Assembly: GCA_016207165.1 (NCBI GenBank)
Contig: JACQQD010000012.1
Location: forward strand, 1-64,000
Source: Microcaldota archaeon
GTDB taxonomy: Archaea; Micrarchaeota; Micrarchaeia; Norongarragalinales; Norongarragalinaceae
DNA length: 64,000 nucleotides
Direction of reading: 5' to 3'
In this document: piece after piece, positions 13,795 to 44,471 of the stretch
Layout of the letters: each line of letters starts with the position of its first letter
Position numbering within the stretch: position 1 is the first letter of the stretch
Program-made: the position numbers and the translations under genes
The notes under the pieces: model-generated
Seen by the model: the letters and a program-made list of their open reading frames with translations, nothing else
What the model was told of the DNA's origin: nothing
Database searches by the model: none

Positions 13795-13804
13795 GCTCAG
13801 TCTT

Positions 13805-27609: not shown

Positions 27610-28694
27610 GAATCCTCGTCTTGAATGCCGGACGGTTCTCGAGCCTGGACGGGGGAGCCGTCCGGTGCCGGGAACTCGTGGTCAAGGCGGGCCACGACGT
27701 GACGTGGGTGGACCCCGTCACGTCCAAAAACTACTACAAAACGGAGGAGGTCGTGCACGGCGTGCCGAAAAACGTGGAATGGGTTCCCGGACGGTACGTA
27801 AAGGCCAATCCATTGGGCGAATGGTGGGCCCGCGAAAAGCACTTTTTGTCCGCGGCCAAAAAATTTGACGGAGACGTGGCGGTGTTCTACAACGCGTGGG
27901 GCACGTGGCGCGCGCGGAGGCACTTGCAGGAAAAGGGCGTTCCGGTGGTGTTTGACTACATCGACTTGATGCACGCCTTCCGAAGCAACGCGGTGGAGCG
28001 AGCGGTTTCCCGAAAAGCCACCGTGCAAGCACTCCGGCAGAGCGATGCCGTGGTGGCCACGGCCACGGATCTGGTGCGAGACGCGAAGCCATTCAACGAC
28101 TGTGTGGCGTTGGTGCCCAATGGCGTGGACACGGCGTTTTACGCCTCGGCCAAGCCCTTTAAAACCAAAAAGCCGTGCGTGGGATTCGTCGGAGGATTCG
28201 GGCCATGGCTGGATGTGGCGGCCGTAGCGTTGGCCGCCAAGGAGAATCCACAAGTTCAATTCCACGTCATCGGCGACGGGTTGCAGCGAAAGACGTTGGA
28301 ATCCGTGGCCAAAAAGCAGTCCAACGTCACGGTGTCGGACGGCTTTGTTGCACCGGGACGGGCCCGTCGGTGGATGGCGTCGTTTGACGTGGGACTGATT
28401 CCCTTCAAGCAAAATGCGTTGACGGACGCCGTGTGCCCGTTGAAGTTGTTTGAGTACTGGGCCACCCAAACCGCGGTGATTGCCGCGCCCAACAAGGAAG
28501 TCAAGCACGTGGCCGGTGACGCGGCGTATTGGGCCAAAACGCCTGGGGAACTTGCCGACGCGGTGCGTAAAGTCACGCACAACGCGTCCAAGCGCAGGGC
28601 ATTGGTGCAAGCCGGAAGCAAAAAAGTGGCGGCGTACGACTGGAAGACGCTCCGCAAAAAGTTTTTGGCGGTGCTGGAGGACGTGGCGGCATGA
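27606..28694 (+). CDS. GT4-type glycosyltransferase
   Basis: 362 aa from ATG 27606. GT-B fold: N-terminal ILVLNAGRFSSLDGGAVRC, middle VALVPNGVDTAFY hinge, and C-domain VGFVGGFGPWLDVAAV. The donor-site region (CPLKLFEYWATQTAVIAAPN) carries the Glu usual for GT4 retaining enzymes. Adds one sugar of the glycan; donor unknown. Overlaps its neighbours on both sides. Confidence 0.8.
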   Translation: MRILVLNAGRFSSLDGGAVRCRELVVKAGHDVTWVDPVTSKNYYKTEEVVHGVPKNVEWVPGRYVKANPLGEWWAREKHFLSAAKKFDGDVAVFYNAWGTWRARRHLQEKGVPVVFDYIDLMHAFRSNAVERAVSRKATVQALRQSDAVVATATDLVRDAKPFNDCVALVPNGVDTAFYASAKPFKTKKPCVGFVGGFGPWLDVAAVALAAKENPQVQFHVIGDGLQRKTLESVAKKQSNVTVSDGFVAPGRARRWMASFDVGLIPFKQNALTDAVCPLKLFEYWATQTAVIAAPNKEVKHVAGDAAYWAKTPGELADAVRKVTHNASKRRALVQAGSKKVAAYDWKTLRKKFLAVLEDVAA

Positions 28695-29587
28695 AAAAAT
28701 TGTTGCGCCGCGGCGCGGCGTGGGCGGCCCCGCTTTTGTGGAGAAAATTCTTCCACGGCGGGACGAAACCGGTTTGGCCGCATGGTAAAAAAGCGGCGGT
28801 GACCGTGAGCTTCGACCCGGATTACCCCGAAGACGTGCAAAGCATTCCACGGCTTTTGGAAATATTCAACGGCGCGGGTTTCAAGTCATCGTTTGCGTGC
28901 ATTGGCCGGTGGATCGAGAAATACCCCCGCGTCCACCACCAAATCCTCGACGAGGGCCACGAGATCATCAACCACACGTACAGCCACCCCAACAATGAGT
29001 TTCTCAACGCCGAACAATTCTTCAACAAAATGCCGGAAAAAGAGCAGGAGCAGGAAATCGCCGGATTTGAAGCCACGGCCAAAACCGTGTTGGACTACAC
29101 GCCTGTGGGTTTTCGGTCCCCGCATTTTGGGGACTTGCATACGCAGAGCGTGTACAACGTGTTGGAACGGCGGGGGTACGCCTACTCCAGTTCCACGAAC
29201 ATGACGGTGACGGACAGTCACGGATTGCCGTATCGGCCGTCCAAGGGAAACTTCCGGAAAAAAGACGAGAACGGGTACAACGTATTGGAGTTGCCGATGG
29301 TGGCGTGCCCGGAGCACTTTTTCCCGGTGTTTGATACGTGGCACTGCTACCGGACCCAGCCTCCGGCGCACCCGGAAGACGGGGAGTTCTCGCGGTTATT
29401 CAAGAAAGCCATCACGCTTGCGGAACGCCATGGCACGTACGCCAACTTCTATTTCGACCCCCGCGACGTGGCGCACCGAAACGAATTTCAGGAGTGCATG
29501 GATTGGTTGAAGGGGCGTTGCGTCTGGGTGGCGTCCAGCCGCGACGTGGCGCACTATTGGAATAAGACGGTGACGTCAAGGACATGA
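28691..29587 (+). CDS. Polysaccharide deacetylase (NodB domain)
   Basis: 298 aa from ATG 28691. The NodB metal site is visible: Asp in VSFDPDYPED, His-x4-His in NHTYSHPN, and the later RSPHFGDL strand. Such enzymes remove N- or O-acetyl groups from sugar chains or nucleotide/lipid-linked sugars. The basic N-terminus with one weak hydrophobic stretch does not look like a clear export signal, so it may act in the cytoplasm on an intermediate. Located inside the wecB operon with 4-nt overlaps. Confidence 0.82.
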   Translation: MKKLLRRGAAWAAPLLWRKFFHGGTKPVWPHGKKAAVTVSFDPDYPEDVQSIPRLLEIFNGAGFKSSFACIGRWIEKYPRVHHQILDEGHEIINHTYSHPNNEFLNAEQFFNKMPEKEQEQEIAGFEATAKTVLDYTPVGFRSPHFGDLHTQSVYNVLERRGYAYSSSTNMTVTDSHGLPYRPSKGNFRKKDENGYNVLELPMVACPEHFFPVFDTWHCYRTQPPAHPEDGEFSRLFKKAITLAERHGTYANFYFDPRDVAHRNEFQECMDWLKGRCVWVASSRDVAHYWNKTVTSRT

Positions 29588-30903
29588 AGCTTTTCGGTTT
29601 GACTCGCGCGGCCGCACAAAAGGCGTTCACGAAAGGCCAAGTCACCGTCAGCGTGTTTGGGTTGGGTAAAATGGGGTTGCCGTTGTCGGCGGTCATGGCT
29701 GACGTCGGCGCGAAAGTCATCGGCGTGGACGTGGATGCGCAACGCGTGCACCAAGTCAACGATGGAAGAAATCCGTTTCCCGAAGAGCCACAGCTTTCGG
29801 AACTCATCGCCGGAAACGTCAGGCAAAAGCGTTTTTCCGCGACGACGAACGCTTCGCACGCCGTGGAAAAAGCCGACGTGCACGTCATCTTGGTGCCCAC
29901 CACCATGCAACATCAAAACGCCAAGAACTCGCCGGTGTTTGCCGCCGCACGCGTCATTGCCAAAAGCCTGCACCCAGGCGACGTCGTCATCACGGAGTGC
30001 ACCCTTCCGCCGGGCACAACCGACGAATTGGCTGAAGTCCTCGAACAAAGCGGTTTGGTTTGCGGGAGGGACTTCGGGGTGGCGCATTGTCCGGAGCGCA
30101 CCATGTCCGGAACCGCGATTCGGGACATCCGGGGCCAGTACCCCAAAATCGTGGGAGCCAACGACGAAAAAACGCGTCAAGCCGTGGCGGGCATGTACGC
30201 CGCGTTCAACCAGAACCAAGTCGTGGTCCTGGAAAGCGTCAAGGAGGCGGAATGCGTCAAAGTGTTTGAAGGCGTGTACCGGTTCGTCAACATTTCGCTG
30301 GCCAACGAGTTGGCGGACGTGGCCGAGCGGATCGGCGTGGACGCTCGACGCGTGTTTGCCGCGGCCAACACGCAGCCGTTCTCCCACATTCATGCTCCTG
30401 GCGCGGGGGCCGGCGGGCACTGCATTCCGGAGTACCCCAAATTCATCGCGTCCAAGCAAACCCGCGTCATCCATGCGGCGACGCAAGTCAATGACGGCCG
30501 ACCCAGGCACGTGGTGGACTTGCTGGAATCCGGATGGGGTGCGGCTGGACTCAAGGCGAAAAGCGTGGCGGTGTTGGGGTTGACGTTTCGGCCCAACGTC
30601 TTGGCGTTTGAGAACACGCCGGCTGGGCCCATCATAGCGGAACTTAAAAAACGCGGAGCCCACGTCTCGGCATTGGACCCGCTCTGCCGCGATGCGCAAT
30701 ACGAAAAGTTCGGCGTGCCGAAGATGAACCGCCTTGCGGACGTGGATGCCGTGGTGATCGTCAACAAGGATGCGGCGTTCTTGGAATTGGATTGGGCGGC
30801 GTTTTCCGGGAAGGCCATGGTTGACGCCGCCGGATTGCTGGACCGGCAAAAAATGGAGGGGTACGGCATCCGATACAAAGCGGTTGGAGGCGGCGGGCCG
30901 TGA
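29584..30903 (+). CDS. Second nucleotide-sugar dehydrogenase (UDP-Glc/GDP-Man DH family)
   Basis: 439 aa from ATG 29584. About 20 residues precede the Rossmann motif VSVFGLGKMGLPLSAVMADVG. The catalytic Cys lies in GAGAGGHCIPEYPKFI. Paralogous to the 26296 gene but divergent from it, so a different substrate is likely (for example a diaminated or 4-epimeric UDP-sugar). In the same operon as wecB, overlapping neighbours by 4 nt. Confidence 0.85.
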   Translation: MKLFGLTRAAAQKAFTKGQVTVSVFGLGKMGLPLSAVMADVGAKVIGVDVDAQRVHQVNDGRNPFPEEPQLSELIAGNVRQKRFSATTNASHAVEKADVHVILVPTTMQHQNAKNSPVFAAARVIAKSLHPGDVVITECTLPPGTTDELAEVLEQSGLVCGRDFGVAHCPERTMSGTAIRDIRGQYPKIVGANDEKTRQAVAGMYAAFNQNQVVVLESVKEAECVKVFEGVYRFVNISLANELADVAERIGVDARRVFAAANTQPFSHIHAPGAGAGGHCIPEYPKFIASKQTRVIHAATQVNDGRPRHVVDLLESGWGAAGLKAKSVAVLGLTFRPNVLAFENTPAGPIIAELKKRGAHVSALDPLCRDAQYEKFGVPKMNRLADVDAVVIVNKDAAFLELDWAAFSGKAMVDAAGLLDRQKMEGYGIRYKAVGGGGP

Positions 30904-32060
30904 AGTTGGCGGTGGTCGCCGGCCAGCCCATGGAGGCGTTCGTCCGGAAAGGCGAAGTCAAGGCGCGGTACTACAACCCTGGAAACGTTTTTGACGAAGT
31001 GCATTTCCTGACCTTCGCAAAAAGCGACGTGGAACCCAAAAAAATCAAGAAAACGGTGGGAAACGCCAAGGCGTTCATCCACGTCTTGGGTCCGTTGAGT
31101 CTGGGCCAAATGCCTGCCGGGGGACGCCGCGTCAAGGAAGCGCTTTTGGAGATTCGGCCGGATGTGGTGCGCAGTTTTACTCCGGGTCCCAAGGGGAGGT
31201 TGGCGGCGGAGGCGGCCTTGGCGGTGGGCGTGCCGTTCGTCTTGTCGCTTCACTCCAATTTTGACGACTTGCGGGACTTGGCTAAAACGCAGGGGCGGTT
31301 GGGCGAGTACGCGCGGCTGTTGTTTTCCAAGGTGTACGCAGAACGCAAGACGGTTTCCAGTGCGGATGCCGTCATCGCCGTGTACCCCTTCATCGTGCCT
31401 TACGCCGAAAAGTTCGGTGCGAAGCATGTGGACGTCATTTACAACAAGGTGTACCCGGAAGACTTTGAAAACGTCCATCCGGTATTGCCGCGGGATGGAC
31501 GAACGGTCATCGGCGTGGGCCGCTTGATTCCGGAAAAAGACCCGACTCCCATCGTTCAGGCCGCGGCGAAAGTGGGGGCGCGGTTGATTTGGGTGGGCGA
31601 CGGCCCGCTGAAAGACAAAGTCCTGGAATCCGCGGCGGAATGCGGCTGCCATTGGGTGCACCGTGCATCCGTTCCCAACGAAAAGCTTCCGGGATACTAC
31701 GCCAGCGCGGACGTATACGCGCAAAACCTTTCCATTGGCGGCGTGTCCATTCCGACCCTTGAAGCCATGGCCGCGGGGTTGCCGGTCGTCGTGTCTGCGC
31801 CCAAAAAATACCCTCGGCCGGATTTGGTGGCAAAAGCCGGCGTCGTGGTGGAGGGTTCACCAGCCGGGTTTGCGCATGCGTTTTCGGAATTGTTCTCCGA
31901 CGCGGCGCGGCGGAAAAAACGGGGCCGGGCGTCGAGAAAAACGTTGCAGGAAATCAACGGCCACCACATGGAGGCTTGTGAAGCCTCGGTGTACCGGCGC
32001 GTTTTGGCGCAACGGGGGATGGGGGTCCGTAAACCGAGAAGAGGCGGCAAACCATTTTAA
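30900..32060 (+). CDS. GT4-type glycosyltransferase
   Basis: 386 aa from GTG 30900, overlapping the previous stop as GTGA. GT-B signs: RTVIGVGRLIPEKDPTPIVQ, LIWVGDGPLKDKV, and GVSIPTLEAMAAGLPVVVSA with the nucleotide-binding Glu. The first half is rather divergent. The basic C-terminal tail (RKPRRGGKPF) may contact the membrane. Donor and acceptor unknown. Confidence 0.8.
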   Translation: MKLAVVAGQPMEAFVRKGEVKARYYNPGNVFDEVHFLTFAKSDVEPKKIKKTVGNAKAFIHVLGPLSLGQMPAGGRRVKEALLEIRPDVVRSFTPGPKGRLAAEAALAVGVPFVLSLHSNFDDLRDLAKTQGRLGEYARLLFSKVYAERKTVSSADAVIAVYPFIVPYAEKFGAKHVDVIYNKVYPEDFENVHPVLPRDGRTVIGVGRLIPEKDPTPIVQAAAKVGARLIWVGDGPLKDKVLESAAECGCHWVHRASVPNEKLPGYYASADVYAQNLSIGGVSIPTLEAMAAGLPVVVSAPKKYPRPDLVAKAGVVVEGSPAGFAHAFSELFSDAARRKKRGRASRKTLQEINGHHMEACEASVYRRVLAQRGMGVRKPRRGGKPF

Positions 32061-32154
32061 ACACGGAAAGGGCCTATGGTAGACAGCGGCCCGCGTTCAA
32101 CATGCACATGGGCCCATGCGCCGTTCAAACAGGCGGCGGCTTCAAGGTAACGAA

Positions 32155-33900
32155 ATGATTATTTTAGGCGTATCCAACACCAAGGACAGCGGGGCGGCGT
32201 TGATCAAGAATGGCGAAATCGTGGCCGCCGCCAACGAAGAACGCTTCACGCGAAAGAAATTGATTCGGGCGTTTCCGCTGCACTCCATCCAATACGTGTT
32301 GGAGGAAGGCGGCGTGAAGTGGGAAGACGTCGACGCGATCACCACCGGCGCCTGGAAGGGCTTGAACCAGGATGAAATCCTGATGGGTTTGGTTGAGGAC
32401 GTGATTTGGAACGCGAAAAATGACCCGGAATCCGGGGCCATCATCATGCAACGGACGAAAGTCGCCGTTCAACGCGACGCCACGTTCAAAAAAGAGCTGG
32501 TGGAGGAACTGGGGAAGCGAAACGTCTTGGACAAACTGCACTACGTCGATCACCACCTGGCGCACGCGGCGTCCGCGCATCACTGTTCGCCTTTCAGCGA
32601 TTCGCTCACCGTGGTCATGGATGGGCGGGGGGACTTCAAGGCCAACAGCGTCTATTGCGTTCGAAACAACGCGTTGGAACTCGTGGATTGCAGCAGTCAC
32701 TTGAATAGCTTGGGATTCGTGTACGCGTTTGTCACCCGCTACCTGGGCTTCACGCCGGACAAACACGAAGGAAAAGTCACGGGGCTGGCGGCGTTTGGCG
32801 ATGCGCAAAAAACCGTCGACATTTTCAGGAAAATGGTTTCCATCGATGAAAACGGCCGGATTCGCGCCCACGTGGGGAAGTATTACTCGCCGTTTTTGAC
32901 CGCCCAAATTCCAGTCATCGAAGAGGAGCTGGCCAAACACAAAAAGGAAGACGTGGCCGCCGGAGTTCAAGCGTGGTTGGAGGAAACGGTCGTGAAATTC
33001 GTGTCCTTTTTCCTCGAAAAGTACCCCATGCGCCACGTTTGCTTGGCGGGCGGCATTTTCGCCAACGTGCGAGTCAACCAGAAAGTCCGGGAAATTCCGG
33101 GCGTGGACAACGTGTACATTCACCCGCACATGGGCGACGGCGGGCTGAGTTTGGGAAGCGCGTTGGCGTATTGGTACGAGCACGGCGGGCGAACCGAAAA
33201 ACCGCTGGAAACCGCGTTTCTGGGGCCTGAATTTTCCGACGATAAAGTCGAAGAGACGCTCCGGAAAAGCTCGGAGGCGCTCGCGTACGTGAAGGTGCAG
33301 GACAAGGCCAAGGCCGTGGCGAAACTGCTTTCAGAAGACCAAATCGTGGGCTGGTTTCAAGGCAGAATGGAGTACGGTCCCCGCGCCTTGGGTCACCGAA
33401 GCATCCTGGCGGCCGCCACGGACAAGAACATCAACCACAACCTCAACCAGCGCCTGCACCGAACCGAATTCATGCCGTTTGCCCCCATGACGCTGGAAGA
33501 ATACGCGTCGTCAAGTTACATCGACTGGAATAAAGACCACATCAGCAGCCGCTTCATGACGATCTGCTATTACTGCCACCCCATCGTCAAAAAGCAGTCC
33601 CCGGCCATCGTCCACGTGGACAACACGGCGCGGCCCCAGATTGTGGGGCCGAAAGACAACCCCGACATTCATGCCCTCATCACGCAATATCATCGGCTCA
33701 CCGGCATCCCGACCATCGTCAACACCAGCTTCAACAACCACGAGGAACCGATTCTGTGCTCGCCGCAGGACGCCGTCGACAGCTTGCTTCGGGACAACGT
33801 CGACGTTCTGTGCATCGGCAACTTCCTGGTGGTTCCCAAGGGCAAGGAGTTCCGAATCGCGTCGGTATCCGATTCAACGGCCACAGACGGCATAAAATAG
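32155..33900 (+). CDS. NodU/TobZ-family O-carbamoyltransferase
   Basis: 581 aa from ATG 32155. Kae1-like N-terminal domain with LGVSNTKDSGAALIKNGEIV, DHHLAHAASAHHCSPF (metal His) and VMDGRGDF. The C-terminal domain contains the hallmark GRMEYGPRALGHRSILA and TSFNNHEEPI. These enzymes transfer a carbamoyl group from carbamoyl phosphate via carbamoyl-AMP to a sugar or antibiotic hydroxyl. Predicted to decorate the glycan. A gap of 94 nt separates it from the preceding GT. Confidence 0.9.
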   Translation: MIILGVSNTKDSGAALIKNGEIVAAANEERFTRKKLIRAFPLHSIQYVLEEGGVKWEDVDAITTGAWKGLNQDEILMGLVEDVIWNAKNDPESGAIIMQRTKVAVQRDATFKKELVEELGKRNVLDKLHYVDHHLAHAASAHHCSPFSDSLTVVMDGRGDFKANSVYCVRNNALELVDCSSHLNSLGFVYAFVTRYLGFTPDKHEGKVTGLAAFGDAQKTVDIFRKMVSIDENGRIRAHVGKYYSPFLTAQIPVIEEELAKHKKEDVAAGVQAWLEETVVKFVSFFLEKYPMRHVCLAGGIFANVRVNQKVREIPGVDNVYIHPHMGDGGLSLGSALAYWYEHGGRTEKPLETAFLGPEFSDDKVEETLRKSSEALAYVKVQDKAKAVAKLLSEDQIVGWFQGRMEYGPRALGHRSILAAATDKNINHNLNQRLHRTEFMPFAPMTLEEYASSSYIDWNKDHISSRFMTICYYCHPIVKKQSPAIVHVDNTARPQIVGPKDNPDIHALITQYHRLTGIPTIVNTSFNNHEEPILCSPQDAVDSLLRDNVDVLCIGNFLVVPKGKEFRIASVSDSTATDGIK

Positions 33901-33951
33901 GACGCCGACTCACAGAAGGTGCCGGCATGGCGATGCGGTGACCCAGGGAAC

Positions 33952-35178
33952 ATGACATCGAACGAATCCACGTGGGAAAAGGCGGTGGCGCTCTCCAGAA
34001 AGTTTTACCGCATTGCGTTTGCGCACGCCGACTTCCGCCACGGGGAACTGGGTAGAGCCGTTGACTTGATCTTGCAAGGTAAAGCCGTGCAAGGGCCGTA
34101 CATCGCCGAAGCCGAACGCGTTTTTTCGCCGTGGACGCAAAAAGAGGCGGCCGGCACCAGCAGCGGCGAAGCCGCCATTCACGCGGCCATCCAAAGCATT
34201 GGAAGAACCGGCGACGTCATTATTCCGTCGTATTGTTGTGGAAACGTTTACTTTGCCGTCACGAAGGCCGGAGGCCGGCCGCGTTACGTGGACGTAAACG
34301 ATTCCTACAACGTGGACGCCTCAGACTTGGAAGACAAGATTACGTCCAAGACCATCGCGGTGGTGGCGCCCAGCCTCTACGGGTTGCCCGCGGAATTGGA
34401 GAAAATCGAGGCGATCTGCCGCCGGCACGACGTGTTCATGGTGGATGACGCGGCCCAGTGCCTGGGGGCGTTTCGTCGGGGCCTGCCCACCGGAAGTTTT
34501 GGCGATGCGGGAGTATACAGTTTCGCCGGAAAGACGATTACGGCCACCGGAGGCGGCATGCTGGTGGGCAAAAAATCAGTGATGCTGGAAGGCGTCCGAA
34601 GCGCCGCGCCTGAATCGGCGTCCAGCGTCGCAAAGGCGTTTTTGGGCATGCTGGCGCATTACCGGTACCGGAGGCACGCGTTGCCGTTTTTGATCCTGAA
34701 AAATTTGGCCCGGCAGGCCGTTGGACGCACCACGCAGCGACGGTATGGCCGGATCTGCAATTTGGACGCCTTTTTGGCGGTCAGTCAGCATGCCGACGTG
34801 GATTGGGTCAACGCGAAGCGTACCCGGAACGCGTCGCTGCTTTGCGAGGCGTTAAACGGCGTCGTGGAATTGCCGCAGAAATCCCGTGGACACGTGTACA
34901 GCAAGTTCGTCGTGCAACTGCCGTTTCGCGCCAAAGCGGAAAGGACGCGGCCGCCGGAGATGGTGCGGTTCGTGCGAGAGATGGCCAAAAAAGGAATCGA
35001 GTGCGAGTGGTGCTACGTGCCCCTGCATTTGCGGTTTGGCGGAGGCAAGAACTTGGAAAACACGGAGCGCGTGGCGGCCACGGCCATGGCCCTTCCCAAC
35101 CACGTTGGCTTGACGGAAGGCCAAGTGCATCAAATCGCCAACGCCGTCAAGGACACGCTGAAATCCATGAACGCGTAG
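33952..35178 (+). CDS. DegT/DnrJ-type PLP aminotransferase (second copy)
   Basis: 408 aa from ATG 33952. The PLP fold is clear: AGTSSGEAAIHAAIQSI phosphate-binding loop, FMVDDAAQCLGAF aspartate, and YSFAGKTITATGGGM with the Schiff-base lysine. It differs from the 21611 protein by an extra basic helical insert in the middle (HYRYRRHALPF). It could aminate a second keto-sugar. Last gene before the hairpin array. Confidence 0.82.
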   Translation: MTSNESTWEKAVALSRKFYRIAFAHADFRHGELGRAVDLILQGKAVQGPYIAEAERVFSPWTQKEAAGTSSGEAAIHAAIQSIGRTGDVIIPSYCCGNVYFAVTKAGGRPRYVDVNDSYNVDASDLEDKITSKTIAVVAPSLYGLPAELEKIEAICRRHDVFMVDDAAQCLGAFRRGLPTGSFGDAGVYSFAGKTITATGGGMLVGKKSVMLEGVRSAAPESASSVAKAFLGMLAHYRYRRHALPFLILKNLARQAVGRTTQRRYGRICNLDAFLAVSQHADVDWVNAKRTRNASLLCEALNGVVELPQKSRGHVYSKFVVQLPFRAKAERTRPPEMVRFVREMAKKGIECEWCYVPLHLRFGGGKNLENTERVAATAMALPNHVGLTEGQVHQIANAVKDTLKSMNA

Positions 35179-35213
35179 CGTGGAAAAACCAAGTCCCTTG
35201 CGCCAGCCGCAGG

Positions 35214-35370
35214 TTATAGCAAACCGCGAAAGTTTCCCGAAACTTTCGCGCCGTGAAGCAAATTCGCAAAGCGAATTTGCTGCATGCAGCAAGTCGCCCG
35301 ACGACTTGCTTCATTTGCTAGATAGCAATCCCCGACTAGTTCGTCGGGTTACTTTCGGGGATTGCTATAA
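35214..35370. repeat. Hairpin-array element with TTATAGCAA/TTGCTATAA termini
   Basis: 157 bp bounded by the inverted repeat TTATAGCAA (35214-35222) and TTGCTATAA (35362-35370). Inside are four successive stems. A 12-bp arm starting CGCGAAAG (35225-35250) comes first. Next is AGCAAATTCGC-AAA-GCGAATTTGCT (35257-35281). Then AGCAAGTCG-N5-CGACTTGCT (35288-35310), and a 13-bp stem beginning TAGCAATCCCC (35323-35367) with a 19-nt loop. Three of the four share the base AGCAA/TTGCT while the inner stem changes. The element lies directly upstream of the methyltransferase, whose TATA box may be the TTGCTATAATAAG at its end. Confidence 0.75.
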
Positions 35371-35422
35371 TAAGCGGTCTTTTCTTTGGATGTAAGAAAA
35401 ACGGAGGAGGCGAGATTTTTTT

Positions 35423-36028
35423 TTGGTGGACATCGTCGGGTACTGGAAGCGTCAAAGCCAGACGACCGAGCGTATCGGCGAGTACACGGAAGAAAAAGTC
35501 GTCGGATTGGTGACGCGCTTGCTTGGGCTTAACCCCAAGAAAACGTTGTTGGACGTGGGGTGCGCCACCGGAAAAATGCTCTCCCGACTTAGGGCCAGAC
35601 GAAAAACGGGCGTGGATTACTCGGAAAAGTACGCCAAGAAGGCGCGGAAAAAAAATCCCTCCGCAAAAATCGTGGTGGCGGAAGCGGCAGAGTTGCCTTT
35701 CAAAAACGCGTCGTTTGACGCGGTGTTGTGCCATTCCCTGATGCACTTGATGGATCCCGCGTACGCGGCCCGCGTGGTGGGCGAGTTGGAACGCGTGTGC
35801 AAGAAAGGCGGCCGCATCGTGATTGGCGACGTGCCGGATCCTCGGACGTACCCCGGAGGAAAATGGGTGTACCGGTTGCGCACGGAGGCGCTCAAGGCAG
35901 TCAACAAACCGCATTACACCATGTTTTCCCCGGCGTTTTTCAAAGAGAAGGGGTACGCGATTGTGGCGGGGCCGGTCAACGACCGGTACTACGCGTACAA
36001 GCAAAAGTACAGCAAACCAAGAAAGTAA
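35423..36028 (+). CDS. Class I SAM-dependent methyltransferase
   Basis: 201 aa from TTG 35423 (GTG 35426 equally possible), with GGAGGAGG upstream. Motif I LLDVGCATGKMLSRL; acidic VDYSEKYAKKA; motif IV-like FDAVLCHSLMHLMDP. It belongs to the UbiE/small-molecule methyltransferase group and may methylate a glycan sugar. The last codons (YSKPRK-stop) lie in the left arm of a downstream hairpin. The gene is bracketed by two related hairpin arrays, like a cassette. Confidence 0.8.
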   Translation: MVDIVGYWKRQSQTTERIGEYTEEKVVGLVTRLLGLNPKKTLLDVGCATGKMLSRLRARRKTGVDYSEKYAKKARKKNPSAKIVVAEAAELPFKNASFDAVLCHSLMHLMDPAYAARVVGELERVCKKGGRIVIGDVPDPRTYPGGKWVYRLRTEALKAVNKPHYTMFSPAFFKEKGYAIVAGPVNDRYYAYKQKYSKPRK

Positions 36029-36103
36029 CCCGACAAAATAGTCTTGGTTTGCTGTCTAGCAAGACCGGCCTATTCGTCGTGAAATTTGCCGGTCTTGCTA
36101 TAA
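36010..36103. repeat. Second hairpin-array element downstream of the methyltransferase
   Basis: Two 13-bp stems. CAGCAAACCAAGA pairs with TCTTGGTTTGCTG (36010-36022, 36042-36054), and TAGCAAGACCGGC with GCCGGTCTTGCTA (36057-36069, 36088-36100). The element ends TTGCTATAA (36095-36103) as at 35362. Loops resemble the one at 35336-35354: the first in inverse orientation (AAGTAACCCGAC), the second direct (CTATTCGTCG). The base AGCAA/TTGCT is constant and the inner base pairs differ between copies. Confidence 0.75.
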
Positions 36104-36128
36104 TGTCAACGCGTTTTTGAACGGGCCG

Positions 36129-36647
36129 CTAACTTTTCTTGAACAGCCAATAGAATTTGGCCAAAATTTTGCTGAACAGTCCGCCGGTGAGGCTGCGTCC
36201 GGCTTTCAGGCTGTTTTGAGCGGGGTGGGGGTTCCACTTGTGCTTCCAAGTGCCTTCGCCGGCCAAGTCCAGGCCGACTTTTCCGCTTTTGAGGCTTAAA
36301 TCCAGGCCGCAGTAAACCAAGTATGAAAACGCGTAGTAAGGACTTTTCTCGTCGATGGAAACGCCTTGTACGACGAGGCGGTCATCCAGGGGGTAAAGCG
36401 CCATGGAGCACAAGTACGTGCCGTCGGGAGTGAACGCGCCGTAGTAGGTGCGCGGGATGTCCAGGTCAAACGGCGGCATCAACAGCCCTTTTCGCTTACG
36501 GTATTGCCGCAAGTGTGTTTCGTGCTCGGAGTCGGGGATGACTCGGACTTGGAGGTTTTCGCGTTGGGCGCGGTTCACTTCGTTGCGGATGTTTTTGGAG
36601 ACGGCACTCAAATCCAAATGGCTTGCGTCCAGCACCAGGGTTTCCAT
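36129..36647 (-). CDS. GNAT/FemAB-like acyltransferase-fold protein
   Basis: 172 aa from ATG 36647. The pattern SKNIRNEVNRAQRENLQVRV, then YRKRKGLLMP, then GTYLCSMALYP and a final FDLDLAGEG-like stretch (VGLDLAGEGTWKHKWNP) resembles a single GNAT/FemAB-type domain as in peptidoglycan-like aminoacyl or acyl transferases. The C-terminus is basic (FYWLFKKS). It lies 6 nt after the flavoprotein gene and is probably co-transcribed with it. Substrate unknown. Confidence 0.55.
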   Translation of the reverse strand: METLVLDASHLDLSAVSKNIRNEVNRAQRENLQVRVIPDSEHETHLRQYRKRKGLLMPPFDLDIPRTYYGAFTPDGTYLCSMALYPLDDRLVVQGVSIDEKSPYYAFSYLVYCGLDLSLKSGKVGLDLAGEGTWKHKWNPHPAQNSLKAGRSLTGGLFSKILAKFYWLFKKS

Positions 36648-36653
36648 GGAAAG

Positions 36654-38087
36654 TCACACGTTGTTGTAGATGTCTTTGGTGCCGTCCAAGACGTCCAAGC
36701 CGCCGACGTCCGTTTTGCGGCCCAAGAGATGGTCGGCGGCCAAAAGCCCGGACTCGACGGCGTGGCCCATGTTGTTGTAGCGGTAGATGGCGGAGCGGCC
36801 GATGGATTGCAGGTTCTTGAATCCGGCGAGGTACTCCGTCACGGTTTGGACGTGGTCTTGGTAGCCGATGAAGTAGACGGGGTACGCGTTTTTCGCCCGA
36901 AGCACCGACGAGCCCACGACGCGTTGGGTTTGAACCAAACCCGATTTCTCAAGTTCATCTTTGGCGAGTTCAATGATTTGAGCGTCGCTTTTCCTCCAGA
37001 AATCGTCGCCGCGGAAGCAGTTGTACTCCACGGAAAGGGGGCACAACGGGCCTCGGCCCATGGCGTCGGAGAGGTTGCGGAAGTTGGTGATGCGGTAGGC
37101 CTGCAAGTCGTCGGAAATGATTTGCAGCCATTGGCCGTCAAACGGGTTGCCGTCCACCACGAAATTGACCATGACGAGGTCACGGAAGTAGAGCTTGGAC
37201 GCGGCGTCAATAACGTCTTGGGGCGGTTTTGGCTTAAGCATTCCGACGAAGTCGTTCAGCGGCAACGTGGAAATAAAGTGTTCACCGGTTACGGCATGGG
37301 TGCCGTCCCGCGTTTGGGTGTCCACGGCGGTGATGCGATCGTGCTGGTGGTGGATGCCGGTTACTTCGGATTGCAGGTGGAATTTCGCGATACCGGTTTT
37401 CTCCGTGATTTCCTTGAGGTGGTCGTACAGGTGTCCGGACCCGTTTTTGTGGTGGAAAAAGACGTGGCCGGCGCCGGTGGGCTCCGCGTCCGCCTTGGCT
37501 TTGGCTTTCTTGGATTGGTTCATCCATGCGTGAATCATCCGCTTCGCCATGGCCAAAAACGAGGGGCGCGAAAGCATGCGGTGCGCCCACTTGCGCTCGA
37601 TGTGTCCGGGGTCGACGCCCCAGAATTTCTTCTGGGGGCCTTCGTGAAATACCGAATACATTTTATCGCCGTAGTCGTTGACCATTTGATCCCGGTAAGA
37701 GGAGGGACGTGGTTTGGGAAGCAGGCTGCGTCGAAGAAAACTGGCGGCAATGGAGGCTTGTTCAGTGACCGGCAGACTCAGGAAAATCTCAGAAAACGAG
37801 CCGAACGCTTTGCCGCGAAAGTACTGCTTCGAGTTTTCGTGCAGGGAAAACATCTGGTTTTCTCCGATGAGCTTCCAGAAGTTGACGATGCGCTCGTTGC
37901 GCCGGATGAAGATGTGGGGGCCCAAGTCAAACTGGCAGCCCAGCAATTCCGTGGTGCGCGAGAGGCCGCCGACCGCCTGGCTTTTCTCGACGACGTCCAC
38001 GGGTTTTCCATGGATGGAAAGTTCATAGGCGGCGGCAAGTCCGGTGGGGCCGGCACCCAAAATCACGGTGTTCAATGGAGAAGTCAT
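36654..38087 (-). CDS. FAD-dependent amine-oxidase-fold protein (UDP-galactopyranose-mutase/PPOX-like)
   Basis: 477 aa from ATG 38087; an in-frame upstream ATG at 38150 would add 21 hydrophobic residues but falls on the TATA region. Dinucleotide motif TVILGAGPTGLAAAYEL, then VVEKSQAVGGLSRT, and the conserved RGPLCPLSVEY region. Related proteins in sugar clusters act on UDP-sugars or isoprenoids. The C-terminal GHAVESGLLAADHLLG is the second FAD-binding end. Under the operator pair at 38132-38169. Confidence 0.78.
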   Translation of the reverse strand: MTSPLNTVILGAGPTGLAAAYELSIHGKPVDVVEKSQAVGGLSRTTELLGCQFDLGPHIFIRRNERIVNFWKLIGENQMFSLHENSKQYFRGKAFGSFSEIFLSLPVTEQASIAASFLRRSLLPKPRPSSYRDQMVNDYGDKMYSVFHEGPQKKFWGVDPGHIERKWAHRMLSRPSFLAMAKRMIHAWMNQSKKAKAKADAEPTGAGHVFFHHKNGSGHLYDHLKEITEKTGIAKFHLQSEVTGIHHQHDRITAVDTQTRDGTHAVTGEHFISTLPLNDFVGMLKPKPPQDVIDAASKLYFRDLVMVNFVVDGNPFDGQWLQIISDDLQAYRITNFRNLSDAMGRGPLCPLSVEYNCFRGDDFWRKSDAQIIELAKDELEKSGLVQTQRVVGSSVLRAKNAYPVYFIGYQDHVQTVTEYLAGFKNLQSIGRSAIYRYNNMGHAVESGLLAADHLLGRKTDVGGLDVLDGTKDIYNNV

Positions 38088-38131
38088 GGACAGTGGATTC
38101 AACCTGGAAAAGACAACACCAACAACAAGAA

Positions 38132-38169
38132 AGTAAAACTTTATATACATTTTGTAAAGTAATCTTTAC
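38132..38169. promoter_or_regulatory. Divergent promoter with glycan-regulon palindromes (site 2)
   Basis: TGTAAAG-TAAT-CTTTACC (38153-38170) lies between the TATA region (TTTATATAC, 38141-38149) and the flippase start at 38214. On the minus side TGTATAT-AAAG-TTTTACT (38132-38149) is a degenerate version that covers the TATA box of the flavoprotein gene. Confidence 0.65.
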
Positions 38170-38213
38170 CTATCGGGCGTAGAGTTTGGAAGGATTTGGG
38201 TTAGTTTCAAGCC

Positions 38214-39632
38214 ATGGCAACGGAGCGAACCACATTTGTCAAGAACACGGCCCTGATTTTGGCGGCCAACGTCTTGGTCTTGGCCATCAGCTTTTTTTTG
38301 CGCCCCCTCATCGCACGATTCATTGGCCCTGACCAGTACGGCGTGTTCGCGTTGATTCTGACCACGTCGATGGTAGTCACTGCGTTCACCGCGTTTTCCA
38401 TGAACAGCGCCGTACTTTACTTCGTATCCAAGCACCACGGCCAGCGACAAAAAGTGGGCCAAACCATGGGCTCGGCTTGTTGGTTCGTCACCGCACTTTT
38501 TGCCGCGTTCTTCGTGCCGCTGTGGCTGCTGATTCCGGCGTTGGTCTCGGAAATCACGTGGTGGCCGTTTGCCACCGCGTACGTCCTTTCGTACGCCAGC
38601 GTCATGCTGTACCTGCTTCAAGCCGGCCAACAGGGCCTCGAAAAATTCAGGGACTACAGCGCCACCCTTTTCCTGTCAACGTTTTTGGCCGGCGTTTTGT
38701 CCGTGGGCGCCGCCTATTTCTTCGGCGACGCATTGGCGGCCGCCGCGCTCCGGGTAGCGGGACTGGCCGCGGTGGTCATCGCCGGATTTTCCATGCTGAA
38801 ACTCGCGTGGGGTTTCAATCGCACACCCCTCAACACGTTACTTCGGTACGCGACGCCCCTGGCCGTCGGCGGGTGGTTTGGATCCTTTTACGCGGTGGTG
38901 GACCGCTACCTCATCGCCCACTTTCACCCGACCGCGGAAGTCGGCTTCTACGACGTGTCGTATGCACTGGTCGTCGCCGTGATCCCGTTTGCGTCCACGT
39001 TTTTCACCGTCATGTCACCCCGCGTCATCAAGAACACGGAATCCTTTCCCACGTATTTCAAGAACATTTCGCGGGCCACGACGTTGGCCGTCACCGGGTT
39101 TGCCTTGGCGGCGTTTTACTTCTCCGACGTCATCGTAACCCTGTTGCTGGGTTCCGAGTACCTGGCGGCGACTCCCATGATCAAAGTATTGGCATTGGCC
39201 GTGCCGTTCATGGCGCTTTACGGATTGAACGCCACGTCGCTTAACGCCTTGGGTAAAACCAAGCTGTCGTCGGGCCTGGCGGTTTTGCTGTTGGCCAGCC
39301 TTCTGGCGCTCAACCTGTTCCTGGTCCAGCCGTTGGGCGGAGTGGGGGCGGCGTGGGCCACCGTGGCCGCGTACGCCCTGGTGACGGGACTGGGAATCGC
39401 GTACGTGCGGGTGAGGCACCGCGTCACCGTGCGGCCGGTGGCGACACAGCTAGCCCTGTTTTACGCGTTCGTGTTGGCGTACGGGTTCCTGGTCGAGCCA
39501 TGGGGTTTCAAAGCCAAGGCCGCGGCTTTCGTGGCGTTTAGTTTGACGACGCTGGCGCTCAACCGCGACCTGATTCAATCCGTGCTCGCCGACGCCCATC
39601 TAAGCCGGTTCATTGAAAAGTGGAAGCGGTAA
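38214..39632 (+). CDS. Wzx/MATE-type polysaccharide flippase
   Basis: 472 aa from ATG 38214. About fourteen hydrophobic helices, with the MOP-superfamily N-terminus KNTALILAANVLVLAISFFL, then FIGPDQYGVFAL and the later NATSLNALGKTKLS segment. Family members flip isoprenoid-linked oligosaccharides to the outside, here most likely the AglB substrate. Single gene, facing the HisF-like gene tail to tail. Confidence 0.87.
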   Translation: MATERTTFVKNTALILAANVLVLAISFFLRPLIARFIGPDQYGVFALILTTSMVVTAFTAFSMNSAVLYFVSKHHGQRQKVGQTMGSACWFVTALFAAFFVPLWLLIPALVSEITWWPFATAYVLSYASVMLYLLQAGQQGLEKFRDYSATLFLSTFLAGVLSVGAAYFFGDALAAAALRVAGLAAVVIAGFSMLKLAWGFNRTPLNTLLRYATPLAVGGWFGSFYAVVDRYLIAHFHPTAEVGFYDVSYALVVAVIPFASTFFTVMSPRVIKNTESFPTYFKNISRATTLAVTGFALAAFYFSDVIVTLLLGSEYLAATPMIKVLALAVPFMALYGLNATSLNALGKTKLSSGLAVLLLASLLALNLFLVQPLGGVGAAWATVAAYALVTGLGIAYVRVRHRVTVRPVATQLALFYAFVLAYGFLVEPWGFKAKAAAFVAFSLTTLALNRDLIQSVLADAHLSRFIEKWKR

Positions 39633-39640
39633 GACCCGTT

Positions 39641-40405
39641 CTATCGTTTTTCGTTCAGCACAACGGAGAGTTCATGGGCGTTGGGAAAATTGATGAGCAC
39701 CGCCCGGTTTCTGCCCATGTATACGGCCATGCTTCCGGCGGCCACCGCCGACGCACCGGCGTCCACGGCTTGCTTGAAATGCATGAGTTCCCAGGCACCG
39801 CCGCAAGCGATGACGGGAATGGAGACGGCGCGGGAAACTTGGCGTATGAGTTCCAAGTCGTAGCCTTGCAGGGTGCCTTCGCGGTCAATGGACGTGAGGA
39901 AAATCTCGCCGGCGCCCCGCTTCTGCACGTTCAACGCATGGGCGGCGGGATCCAGGCCCGTGGGCGTCGTACCGCTGCGAGTAAAGACTTCGTAGCCGGA
40001 ACCGGTTTTTTTGGCGTCGATGGAAACCATTACGGCTTGCGCCCCGAACACCTCGGAGGCCTGCGTGATGAAGGAGGGGTTTTCCACGGCATGGGTGTTG
40101 ACCACGATTTTCTCGACGCCCAAGGCGAAAAGCCGGCGGGCGTCGTCCAAACTCGTTATGCCGCCGCCGTACGTAAGCGGCATGAAGCACTCGTCGGCAA
40201 TCTGCTGGATGGCCTCAAACGCAGGTTTTCGGTTCTCCCGCGTCGCGGAAATGTCTAAAACCACCAACTCGTCCACCTGCTTTTCGTTGTAAATCTTGAT
40301 GGCATTCACCGGGTCGCCGACGTAGTTGGCGTCCTTGAATTGGATGGTCTTGACGAGCCGGTCGTTCTTCAAAAGCAGGCAAGGCATGACGCGGGTTAAC
40401 AACAT
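39641..40405 (-). CDS. HisF-like subunit of a sugar amidotransferase (WbuZ type)
   Basis: 254 aa from ATG 40405. A TIM barrel with HisF motifs (VVLDISATRENRKPAFEAI, LTYGGGI, VSIDAKK, VIACGGAWE). In surface-glycan clusters such proteins work with a HisH-like glutaminase and a WbpG-like protein to convert an N-acetyl group to an acetamidino group. Here it is 4 nt after the HisH-like gene, and the WbpG-like gene is 2.7 kb away. No other histidine genes are present. Confidence 0.85.
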   Translation of the reverse strand: MLLTRVMPCLLLKNDRLVKTIQFKDANYVGDPVNAIKIYNEKQVDELVVLDISATRENRKPAFEAIQQIADECFMPLTYGGGITSLDDARRLFALGVEKIVVNTHAVENPSFITQASEVFGAQAVMVSIDAKKTGSGYEVFTRSGTTPTGLDPAAHALNVQKRGAGEIFLTSIDREGTLQGYDLELIRQVSRAVSIPVIACGGAWELMHFKQAVDAGASAVAAGSMAVYMGRNRAVLINFPNAHELSVVLNEKR

Positions 40406-40409
40406 ACCG

Positions 40410-41036
40410 TCACGCCTTCCTGACGAAGTTTTCCAACAGCTTCATTCCAAACGAGTGGCTTTTTTCGGGGTGGAACTGGACGCCGAAGATGTTGCCTTTG
40501 GCCACCGACGAAGTGAAATCGTAGCCGTAGGGCGTGGTGGCGGCCACGTCCGACGGGTTTTGGCAGACGACGTGGTAGGAGTGCACGAAGTAAAACCGCG
40601 AGTCGTCGGGCATGCCCGAAAACAGGGGGTCTTCTTGCTGGATGGACACGCGGTTCCACCCCATGTGCGGGATTTTCAGTCCCATCTTCGGGTTGAACTT
40701 GAATCGGACGGTCTCTCCTTGAATCCAGCCCAGGCCCGGAAGTTTTCCTTCCTCGCTTTTTTTGCTCAAGAGTTGCATGCCGAGGCAAATGCCCAGCACC
40801 GGGGTCTTGTCTTTGAGGACTTTTTTGTTCAATACCGGGATCAGCCCGCTTTGGTTCAACGCCTGCATGCCGGAGTCAAAAGCGCCCACGCCCGGCAAGA
40901 ATAGTTTTTCCGCGGCCTCGATGACGGCGGGATCCGACGACACGGTGGCCCGGACGCCGATGCGTTTGAGCATGTTCTGAATGGAACCCAAATTGCCGAT
41001 GCCGCAGTCCACGATGACCAGCATGGGCTTACTCAT
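40410..41036 (-). CDS. HisH-like glutamine amidotransferase subunit (WbuY type)
   Basis: 208 aa from ATG 41036. Class I glutaminase triad: Cys in LGICLGMQLL, His-Glu in GVQFHPEKSH. Oxyanion strand VDCGIGNLGS at the N-terminus. It releases ammonia from glutamine and channels it to its HisF-like partner. In the same minus operon as a GT4 gene upstream. Confidence 0.87.
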   Translation of the reverse strand: MSKPMLVIVDCGIGNLGSIQNMLKRIGVRATVSSDPAVIEAAEKLFLPGVGAFDSGMQALNQSGLIPVLNKKVLKDKTPVLGICLGMQLLSKKSEEGKLPGLGWIQGETVRFKFNPKMGLKIPHMGWNRVSIQQEDPLFSGMPDDSRFYFVHSYHVVCQNPSDVAATTPYGYDFTSSVAKGNIFGVQFHPEKSHSFGMKLLENFVRKA

Positions 41037-41089
41037 GGCAAGTACCCCATAAAACCGTCGCCATGGAATCGAAATCCGGTGTCTTCACG

Positions 41090-42136
41090 TCAGGTCAGCC
41101 CCTCATACGCTTGAATGAGTTGGCGGGTAATGGGTTGCCACTGGTGGTGCTTGAGCACGAATTTTCGGGCGCGCTCGCCCATTTTTTCCCGGTAGGCCGG
41201 ATCGGCCAAGGCCAACAGTCCGGCCAGGATTTCCTCCTGCGTGTGGGCGTTGGCAATGGGCGGTTTTTCCCCGTAGAAGCGTTCGCCGAGTTTTTCGTCG
41301 ATGTACCGCAGGACCGGTTTTCCGCAAGACATGGCCTCAAGCGCCACCAACCCAAAGGAGCCGATGTTGAACTCGTCAGCCAAGAAATCGGCTTTTCGGT
41401 ACCACGAAAGCATTTCGGCTTGGCTGAGCCAATTTAGAAACGTGACGTTGCGTCCGATGCCCAATTCGGAAACCAGCGCCTTGCTTCTCTCTTTATGGAT
41501 GTCCCAATCCACGGCAAACAACTGCGCATCGGGATGGGTCTTGAGAAATTCGGCGAAGGCCCTGAAGAACTTGTCGTTGCCTTTCGTCACCCAGGAATGC
41601 CGGGTGGGATAGAAAATGGTCAGCCGCGGGTCGGCTCGCGCGACGGAACGCGGCGAATACGTTTCCGTGTCAATGATTTGGAAGACGAATTCCGCATCCA
41701 GGCCCATCTTTTCGAACAACCCCACCTGATCCGGCTGGGAAAAAAGGAGGTGGTCGCACGACGCATACGCGCGCCGCAACAAGAAACCCAGCAAGGTATT
41801 TTCCTGTGCGAACAACCTCAAATCGCTTCCCACGGGTTGCGCGATGAACGGCTTCCCCAAGAGTTGCGCGTAGACGACGCGGCCCCCATGCGCGTGGATC
41901 ACGTCGTATTTCCGCGTGTTTTTCCAGAGCGTGTACAGCGTCTTTGCCGGGTTCTGGGGCCGCCAGTATTTGACCCAAAAATGCCGCTGGTCTTCCGGTG
42001 GCAGTTCCACATCGCTTGGATCGCTGGAGACCATCAACTCGCAGTCTACGCCAGCCTGCCGCAAGTATTTAGCGTAATTGAACGACAGGTTGCAGACGTT
42101 GCCCAGCTGAAGCACTTTCACGACCCATGCACCCAC
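41090..42136 (-). CDS. GT4-type glycosyltransferase
   Basis: 348 aa from ATG 42136 (an internal GTG start after WV is possible). VIHAHGGRVVYAQLLGKPFI and RLTIFYPTRHSWVTKGND mark the two GT-B halves; the nucleotide-site Glu is in GSFGLVALEAMSCGKPVLRY. First gene of the operon with the HisH-like and HisF-like subunits. It may transfer the acetamidino sugar. Site 3 palindrome lies just upstream. Confidence 0.8.
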   Translation of the reverse strand: MGAWVVKVLQLGNVCNLSFNYAKYLRQAGVDCELMVSSDPSDVELPPEDQRHFWVKYWRPQNPAKTLYTLWKNTRKYDVIHAHGGRVVYAQLLGKPFIAQPVGSDLRLFAQENTLLGFLLRRAYASCDHLLFSQPDQVGLFEKMGLDAEFVFQIIDTETYSPRSVARADPRLTIFYPTRHSWVTKGNDKFFRAFAEFLKTHPDAQLFAVDWDIHKERSKALVSELGIGRNVTFLNWLSQAEMLSWYRKADFLADEFNIGSFGLVALEAMSCGKPVLRYIDEKLGERFYGEKPPIANAHTQEEILAGLLALADPAYREKMGERARKFVLKHHQWQPITRQLIQAYEGLT

Positions 42137-42172
42137 GCCGGCGTCTTGCGGCCGACACCACGCTCAGAGAAA

Positions 42173-42234
42173 TGTAAAGTTTGTTTTACATGCCCCTATT
42201 TAACGGTTTTTAGAGATGTAAAGTTTATTTAACA
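42173..42234. promoter_or_regulatory. Divergent promoter with two glycan-regulon palindromes (sites 3 and 4)
   Basis: TGTAAAG-TTTG-TTTTACA (42173-42190) and TGTAAAG-TTTA-TTTAACA (42217-42234) sit symmetrically around one TATA-like CCTATTTAACG (about 42195-42205). Each lies between that TATA box and the start codon of one divergent gene (42136 minus, 42248 plus), the classic repressor position. Confidence 0.75.
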
Positions 42235-42247
42235 TGGCGTCGCCGGT

Positions 42248-43108
42248 ATGCCCATGGAGAAAGTGCTCATCACCGGCGCCAACGGCTATCTGGGAGCGCG
42301 GCTTGCCGAACAACTGCAATCCGGCTACGACGTCATCGGACTGGTCCGAAGCCAAAAAAAAATGCCGTTTGAAAGCGTCGTTCACGACTTAAGCTCGCCG
42401 GACCAGCTGGAAGTGGACTTTGACGCCGCCATCCACGTGGCCGCCATGGAGCCGGACGCATGCCGAAAAGACCCGGTACAAGCGGAGCGCACCAACGTTT
42501 TCGGAACCATCAAACTCCTGGAAGCCGCCAGGAAAAACAAGGCCGAAAAGTTCATCTACGCATCCACCGGATCCGTATACGGCCCAAACGAAAAGCCCGC
42601 CCGCGAAACCATGGCCGTGAATTGCCAGGACGCGTATTGCAGAACCAAATACGGGGGGGAATTGGCCGCGCGACGCTTCAGCCGGTTCTTCCCGGTTTGC
42701 ACGCTGCGTTACTTTTTTCCCTACGGCCCCGGAACACACCCCAGCCGGCTAGTGCAACGAATGGTCAAACACATCCAAACAGGGCAACCCGTTGAACTAA
42801 ACAACGGGAATCGCCCGCAACTCAATCCCCTGTACATCGATGACGTGGTGGCCGCCACCCGCCTTGCGTTGGAACAGGACACCGGCGCGCATGCCGTTCT
42901 GAACGTGGCCGGCGAGGAAAAAACGGACATCCGGGACTTGGCGGAAAAAATCGGCCGCGCCCTCGGCGGGAAGAAACCGGTTTTCAAAAGAACCGGGAAA
43001 ACGTGCTCCAATTACTTGGCGGACATCACCGAGCTAAAAAAAACAGGCTTCCGGCAACGATACTCGCTGGAAGAAGGAATCCTCAAGACGGTTCAAGCCA
43101 CGGCGTAG
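42248..43108 (+). CDS. NAD-dependent epimerase/dehydratase (SDR)
   Basis: 286 aa from ATG 42248. VLITGANGYLGARLAEQL, YASTGSVYGP and AYCRTKYGGELAARRF give the cofactor loop, catalytic Ser and the Tyr-x3-Lys pair. Shorter than GalE; closer to dTDP-sugar or UDP-sugar reductase/epimerase types. Monocistronic, converging on the WbpG-like gene. Confidence 0.82.
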   Translation: MPMEKVLITGANGYLGARLAEQLQSGYDVIGLVRSQKKMPFESVVHDLSSPDQLEVDFDAAIHVAAMEPDACRKDPVQAERTNVFGTIKLLEAARKNKAEKFIYASTGSVYGPNEKPARETMAVNCQDAYCRTKYGGELAARRFSRFFPVCTLRYFFPYGPGTHPSRLVQRMVKHIQTGQPVELNNGNRPQLNPLYIDDVVAATRLALEQDTGAHAVLNVAGEEKTDIRDLAEKIGRALGGKKPVFKRTGKTCSNYLADITELKKTGFRQRYSLEEGILKTVQATA

Positions 43109-43112
43109 GCCA

Positions 43113-44282: not shown

Positions 44283-44374
44283 ACTATAGGGTCAAGCCAA
44301 TCCAAACCAAGCGGCGGACCATCGAGTCGAAGCCACGATGCCACCCCGCCTTTTGAAGCAAACCTAGGAACGAA

Positions 44375-44392
44375 TGTATATAAAACTTTACA
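44375..44392. promoter_or_regulatory. Glycan-regulon palindrome overlapping TATA (site 5)
   Basis: TGTATAT-AAAA-CTTTACA keeps a perfect right half and a degenerate left half that doubles as a TATA box (TATATAAAA). It lies between the divergent genes starting at 44282 (minus) and 44472 (plus) and resembles the minus-side element at 38132-38149. Confidence 0.6.
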
Positions 44393-44471
44393 TCCTCACG
44401 TACCATGGGAAATCGGAAAAAAAGAAAAGCGATCAAAAAGATTCGAACACGAAAAACCGTGGACAAACGAT

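What the first reader, a model, noticed from the sequence alone, without database searches (positions are those of the whole stretch)
35214..36103. Methyltransferase gene bracketed by arrays of hairpins with constant base and variable stems
Five stems share the base AGCAA/TTGCT (35257, 35288, 35323, 36010, 36057) but have different, fully compensated inner stems. Three carry similar 18-19-nt loops, one of them inverted. The arrays begin TTATAGCAA and/or end TTGCTATAA. The last codons of the gene form one arm of a hairpin. Compensated variation means selection for structure, or repeated generation by a dedicated mechanism. Candidates are a REP/MITE-like element, a recombination site of a gene-cassette system, or a regulatory RNA.
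Basis: seen in the sequence. Interest (0 to 1): 0.8.

Follow-up and report, generated by a model that had tools for sequence, protein, structure and literature searches.

The report
Mobile double-hairpin DNA repeats in Micrarchaeota
The hairpins around this gene are copies of a previously unlisted, patchily spread family of tiny (about 92-base) jumping DNA elements in the archaeal group Micrarchaeota; each is a pair of DNA hairpins whose stems change but always stay matched, and whatever moves them was not found.

Summary
The two arrays are two copies of one dispersed family. A copy is 93-95 nt: TA-[hairpin 1]-GA-[hairpin 2]-TA, with hairpin 2 roughly the reverse complement of hairpin 1. There are about 30 places in this 1.27-Mb genome and copies in 10 of 60 relatives, all Candidatus Micrarchaeota where named, patchily. 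The family is mobile. In relative G008 a host repeat exists empty (at least 4 copies) and filled (3 copies, three stem types) at the same TA. No copy examined lies at an orthologous site in G001. A copy is 98% identical to one in another species whose neighbouring genes do not align. Stem changes are two-sided and Watson-Crick (133 two-sided, 0 one-sided cells; 1 G-U), which favours recognition as a DNA hairpin over an RNA function. The target is symmetric (RRRY-TA-RYYY). The methyltransferase is not cargo; the right-hand copy landed in the TA of its stop codon. The left copy carries a nested second hairpin element. Y1, DDE_3, resolvase, DDE_Tnp_1 and IS110-type genes do not track the elements, so the mobiliser is unknown. 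Closest known: REPINs and Haloquadratum small mobile repeats. New variant of a known kind.

The parts
35215..35369 (+). Class I double-hairpin element, left copy, interrupted by a nested insert (155 nt; 95 nt without it)
   Evidence: TATAG...CTATA ends, GA linker
35215..35216 (.). TA, left copy of the target dinucleotide (left element)
   Evidence: TA on both sides of filled sites shown for other copies
35217..35320 (+). Hairpin 1 of the left element (stem CGCGAAAGTTTC/GAAACTTTCGCG, base TAGCAA/TTGCTA), split by the insert
35254..35313 (+). Nested class II element, 60 nt: TGA-hairpin-GCATGC-hairpin-TCA; removing it restores an uninterrupted hairpin 1 (CCG|TTTGCTA)
   Evidence: 57-nt versions in L019, L021, L042
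35321..35322 (+). GA linker between the two hairpins of the left element
   Evidence: GA in 61 of 75 copies
35323..35367 (+). Hairpin 2 of the left element (stem TAGCAATCCCCGA, 19-nt loop CTAGTTCGTCGGGTTACTT)
35368..35369 (.). TA, right copy of the target dinucleotide (left element)
35423..36028 (+). SAM-dependent methyltransferase gene (TTG start, 201 aa); its last six sense codons and stop lie in the right element; without the element the frame ends AAG-TAA at the target TA
36008..36102 (-). Class I double-hairpin element, right copy, intact, 95 nt, 113 bits
36010..36054 (-). Hairpin 2 of the right element (read on the - strand; stem CAGCAAACCAAGA, 19-nt loop)
36055..36056 (-). GA linker (TC on + strand)
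36057..36100 (-). Hairpin 1 of the right element (stem TAGCAAGACCGGC, loop AAATTTCACGACGAATAG)

Best explanation
These are copies of a non-autonomous mobile DNA element, about 90 nt between two TA dinucleotides, made of two inverted hairpin units. SHOWN: copies insert at TA in such a way that TA flanks both sides; they are absent from matching sites in relatives; smaller hairpin elements insert into them; their hairpins are kept by two-sided Watson-Crick changes while the loop motif (about AAAGTWWNNCGAC) is kept by sequence. INFERRED: an enzyme acting in trans recognises each end as an extruded or single-stranded DNA hairpin plus its loop, cuts at TA and inserts into a symmetric RRRY-TA-RYYY target in double-stranded DNA. 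Mismatched copies move poorly, so active lineages keep paired stems while stem letters drift. Copies survive mainly between genes or at stop codons, where the element supplies a new stop. The methyltransferase gene is a bystander.
For: Genome-wide family: TTGCTATAA occurs 13 times per strand, against 0-1 for the control read backwards; 51 model hits in G000. Patchy: 10 of 60 relatives, up to 65 hits; all 20 pattern hits among 84,980 species' genomes are Micrarchaeota. Up to 98% identity to a G001 copy while the surrounding 6 kb does not align. Empty and filled host repeat in G008: GGGT-TA-AGTT against GGGT-TA[TAG..CTR]TA-AGTT. No orthologous copy between G000 and G001. Tandem G001 copies sharing one TA. 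Termini 75/75 and 73/75 TA. Structure: A1 95.8% paired with 0 one-sided cells; A2 96.7% paired, 133 two-sided, 0 one-sided, 1 G-U. Symmetric target. 54 of 61 copies intergenic; of those facing a stop codon, half lie within 20 nt of it against 17% of random TA sites.
Against: No mobiliser or autonomous copy was found. A symmetric TA target suggests a DDE or serine-type enzyme, which normally needs sequence-specific double-stranded ends rather than hairpins, so the inferred chemistry is an unusual mix. TA duplication of a 90-nt element and blunt insertion of a 92-nt element cannot be told apart from the sequence. Cells in the pair counts are not independent, because copies fall into subfamilies. 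In the full set of 75 copies 6.5% of stem cells are not Watson-Crick (104 mismatches, 23 G-T). The MAGs are 71-90% complete.
Confidence: 0.75

Rival explanations
1. REP/REPIN-type element moved by a Y1 tyrosine (RAYT, HUH) transposase acting on single-stranded hairpins.
For: Same architecture: two inverted hairpin units, compensatory changes, mostly extragenic (PMC3116915); dimers with different stems are common among REPs (PMC3733652).
Against: No Pfam Y1_Tnp in G000, G001, G002 or G008, the copy-rich genomes; only 2 of 10 element genomes have one, against 8 of 50 without elements. No unpaired GTAG/CGTC head. TA flanks on both sides and a symmetric target. G-T pairs, reported as often observed in GTAG stems, are rare here.
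Confidence: 0.15
2. MITE of an IS630/Tc1/mariner- or IS427-like transposase that reads double-stranded ends; hairpins are incidental.
For: TA at both ends, TA flanking filled sites, symmetric target. TATAG-type ends recall Neisseria Correia elements (own knowledge).
Against: DDE_3 absent from G000, G001, G002, G008; DDE_Tnp_1 not associated, and the G008 copies are unrelated single ISs without these ends. The terminal bases vary between subfamilies (TATAGCAA, TATACCAA, TATAGTTG, TATAGCGG) while stems stay paired, which a dsDNA reader does not require.
Confidence: 0.25
3. A structured RNA or transcription terminator/stabiliser at gene 3' ends.
For: Strong hairpins and enrichment near stop codons.
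Against: Near-absence of G-U pairs and one-sided changes; gene-orientation contexts equal random TA sites (27/16/11 tandem/divergent/convergent against 51/31/18%); sites not shared between congeners; no Rfam match.
Confidence: 0.07
4. Recombination sites of an integron-like cassette system flanking the methyltransferase.
For: Hairpins with constant bases next to one gene.
Against: Copies are scattered singly beside unrelated genes; the two window copies are different subfamilies with complete ends of their own; precise empty sites lack any gene. A linked tyrosine recombinase was not searched for.
Confidence: 0.03

Closest known systems
REPINs / REP dimers (BIMEs) with RAYT transposase
   Same: Pairs of inverted DNA hairpin units of similar size, compensatory variation, high copy number, extragenic, non-autonomous (PMC3116915, PMC3733652)
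   Different: No Y1 transposase in the copy-rich genomes, no GTAG/CGTC tag, TA on both sides, symmetric target, long loops with a conserved motif, very few G-T pairs, archaeal
Small mobile repeats (SMR-A/B) of Haloquadratum walsbyi
   Same: Archaeal, 80-110 bp, inverted terminal repeats, no transposase, mobiliser called enigmatic, nesting among elements (PMC3119063)
   Different: SMR-A are reported to target PATE palindromes and to make no target duplication; class I sites here are not palindromic on average and show TA on both sides. Sequences not compared
PATEs (IS605-derived palindrome elements)
   Same: Near-terminal palindromes, no coding capacity
   Different: PATEs lack terminal inverted repeats and relate to IS605-type transposons; here ends are inverted and no Y1 gene accompanies them in the copy-rich genomes
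TA-target MITEs such as NEMIS/Correia (from own knowledge) of the IS630/Tc1 type
   Same: TA flanks, TATAG-like start, about 100 nt
   Different: Two internal hairpins with variable paired stems instead of one long conserved terminal repeat; no DDE_3 gene found

Membership tests
REP/REPIN | Two inverted palindromic hairpin units forming one replicative unit | tested here: met
REP/REPIN | GTAG or CGTC tag at the hairpin foot | tested here: not met
   consensus TA-TAGCAA with TAG paired to CTA
REP/REPIN | RAYT (Y1) gene in the genome | tested here: not met
   none in G000, G001, G002, G008
MITE (general) | Short, non-coding, inverted ends, multicopy, mobile | tested here: met
IS630/Tc1/mariner MITE | TA on both sides of the insertion | tested here: met
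   a blunt 92-nt insertion would look the same
IS630/Tc1/mariner MITE | Related DDE transposase with matching ends | tested here: not met
   DDE_3 absent from the four copy-rich genomes
PATE / IS200-IS605 | Ends related to an IS605-type transposon, insertion without duplication | tested here: inconclusive
   no Y1 gene in the copy-rich genomes; TnpB not searched; duplication ambiguous
Haloquadratum SMR | Sequence relation to HqIRS40-43/55 | not tested
   sequences not held in the paper text that was read
Integron attC | Cassette array of hairpins with genes between them | tested here: not met
   copies lie singly beside unrelated genes
Integron attC | Integron integrase (tyrosine recombinase) in the genome | not tested
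Known RNA family | Match to an Rfam model | tested here: not met

The most novel reading that the evidence does not exclude
A mode of DNA transposition in which an as yet unknown archaeal enzyme recognises both element ends as folded DNA hairpins (structure plus loop, stem letters free) but inserts into a symmetric double-stranded TA target, leaving TA on both sides: a combination not known to me from the IS200/IS605-REP or IS630/Tc1 groups.
Probability: 0.3. Interest if true: 0.85.

Novelty: new variant of a known kind. Interest (0 to 1): 0.62.

Why it matters
It adds a patchy but widespread family of miniature mobile elements to Micrarchaeota, whose repeats are hardly described in the papers searched. 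Paired stems that drift while loops hold give a natural record of what a mobilising enzyme sees, with copies, empty sites and subfamilies ready for testing. If hairpin recognition and a TA target are really combined, the enzyme behind it would be new.

Tried and rejected
Kissing loops between the two hairpins: own pairs no more complementary than shuffled ones (4.49 against 4.59). Avoidance of equal stems in one element: not supported (3.58 against 3.42 identities of 7). Orthologous, conserved copies between G000 and G001: three intergenic regions hold a copy in both, but at different distances, orientations or stem types, so they are read as independent insertions. Insertion into palindromes as for SMR-A: no excess of palindromes at empty sites. 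A transposase next to a copy in G008 (L303): a single IS with no matching end on its other side. Autonomous copy with hairpins flanking a gene: none in the stretches held. Multi-copy protein genes as mobiliser candidates: one adjacent pair only. Phage, plasmid and viral collections: no match.

Full report
Observation. The window lies in a 1.27-Mb genome (G000). All pattern hits in the species-level genome collection are Candidatus Micrarchaeota MAGs, so the host is very probably a Micrarchaeon. Two of the named hairpins (35257, 35288) belong to a separate 60-nt element nested in the left array.

The unit. Collecting copies from the genome shows a unit of 93-95 nt: TA-[TAGCAA N7 loop N7' TTGCTA]-GA-[the same, inverted]-TA. 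Of 75 collected copies from several genomes, 52 are 95 nt and 17 are 94 nt; 75 begin and 73 end with TA; 61 have the GA linker. The two hairpins share a loop motif, about AAAGTWWNNCGAC, in inverted orientation. The left window copy (35215-35369) and the right window copy (36008-36102) are two such units with different stems.

Structure. In 14 copies 95.8% of stem cells pair, with two-sided changes in 11 of 26 pairs and no one-sided cell. In 40 diverse single hairpins 96.7% pair; 133 cells differ on both sides, none on one side, and one is a G-U pair. In the larger set of 75 copies, 1823 stem cells are Watson-Crick, 23 G-T and 104 mismatched, with mismatches gathered at a few positions of certain subfamilies. 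Pairs of hairpins with identical 18-19-nt loops can differ by three or four fully paired stem positions with no unpaired change. Selection through an RNA would be expected to leave more G-U pairs; G-T pairing is reported as often observed in bacterial GTAG repeats (PMC3733652). I read this as selection on a DNA hairpin. Copies fall into subfamilies, so the cells are not independent events.

Mobility. A covariance model finds 51 hits in G000 (both strands counted), 65 and 29 in two congeners, 46 in a different genus of the family, and fewer in six others; 50 of 60 relatives have none. A G001 copy is 98% identical to the right window copy, while the genes in the 6.1-kb query do not align at DNA level. 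In G008 a host palindromic repeat occurs empty at least four times (GTTTACGGGTTAAGTTCACG) and filled three times, each with a different stem subfamily, exactly at the TA, with TA then on both sides. Two tandem copies in G001 share one TA. Comparing G000 with G001, about seven syntenic sites are empty in G001; three intergenic regions hold a copy in both, but at different distance, orientation or type, so no copy is read as orthologous (emptiness rests on the absence of a model hit, since intergenic DNA is diverged). A 90-nt element with TA duplication and a 92-nt element inserted bluntly predict the same sequence.

Where they sit. Of 61 copies in G000 and G001, 54 are outside predicted genes, though most TA sites are inside genes; among those facing a stop codon half lie within 20 nt of it, against 17% for random intergenic TA sites; tandem, divergent and convergent contexts match the random ones. 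Fifteen of 74 empty sites restore a stop codon of an open frame at the TA, against 10% of random TA sites. The right window copy is one: without it the methyltransferase ends ...AAG-TAA; with it the gene gains six codons and an element-borne stop. That explains why the gene's last codons form a hairpin arm. The empty-site consensus is symmetric, RRRY-TA-RYYY, as expected of a dimeric enzyme on double-stranded DNA.

Mobiliser. Y1_Tnp, DDE_3, Resolvase, DDE_Tnp_1 and Transposase_20 do not follow the elements; the first two are absent from all four copy-rich genomes. No copy with a gene between its hairpins was seen, and the G000 and G001 stretches hold almost no multi-copy genes. The enzyme is therefore unknown, borne elsewhere, or of a family not tested (tyrosine recombinases and TnpB were not searched).

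Comparison. REPINs share the architecture and compensatory changes (PMC3116915), but the tag and the Y1 gene are not met. Haloquadratum small mobile repeats share size, lack of a transposase, nesting among elements and an enigmatic mobiliser (PMC3119063), but SMR-A are described as making no duplication and targeting palindromes, which class I copies do not. No paper found describes such elements in Micrarchaeota or DPANN archaea. I file it as a new variant of miniature non-autonomous mobile DNA, not as a member of any of these families.

Confidence. That it is a mobile element family: very likely. That its ends are recognised as DNA hairpins: likely, inferred from covariation. That hairpin recognition is combined with a double-stranded TA target: possible, and the most novel reading.

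Noticed in passing
window 35254-35313; L019 1447-1503, L021, L042: Class II nested elements, 57-60 nt, TGA-hairpin-GCATGC-hairpin-TCA, again with stems that vary but pair; seen only inside class I copies. One loop is inverted between L021 (CCAAG) and L042 (CTTGG).
   Followed up: partly
L148 3855-4058, L163 3819-4022, L166 14596-14798, L042: Class III: an insert of about 112 nt with four hairpins of variable stems, found at the start of hairpin 2 of class I copies in G000 and G001.
   Followed up: partly
L247, L248, L249, L250 (G008): A further palindromic repeat of G008 (TTCAAACCCGCGCGAATCCC...GTTTACGGGTTAAGTTCACGCGCGAATTAC), the host of three class I insertions at one TA.
   Followed up: partly
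G047 and G042 loci L273-L288: Variant copies with longer (60-nt hairpin) or almost loop-less hairpins and GC or no linker: the family is structurally broader than the model built here.
   Followed up: partly
window 13740-14003 (-), 58619-58754 (-): SRP RNA matching the bacterial large model, and a tRNA hit of 136 nt that probably holds an intron.
   Followed up: no
window about 27400-45400: Cluster that looks like glycan/surface genes (glycosyltransferases, nucleotide-sugar dehydrogenase and epimerases, DegT aminotransferase, carbamoyltransferase-like, flippase-like, hisH/hisF-like pair); mostly named by eye from the translations.
   Followed up: no
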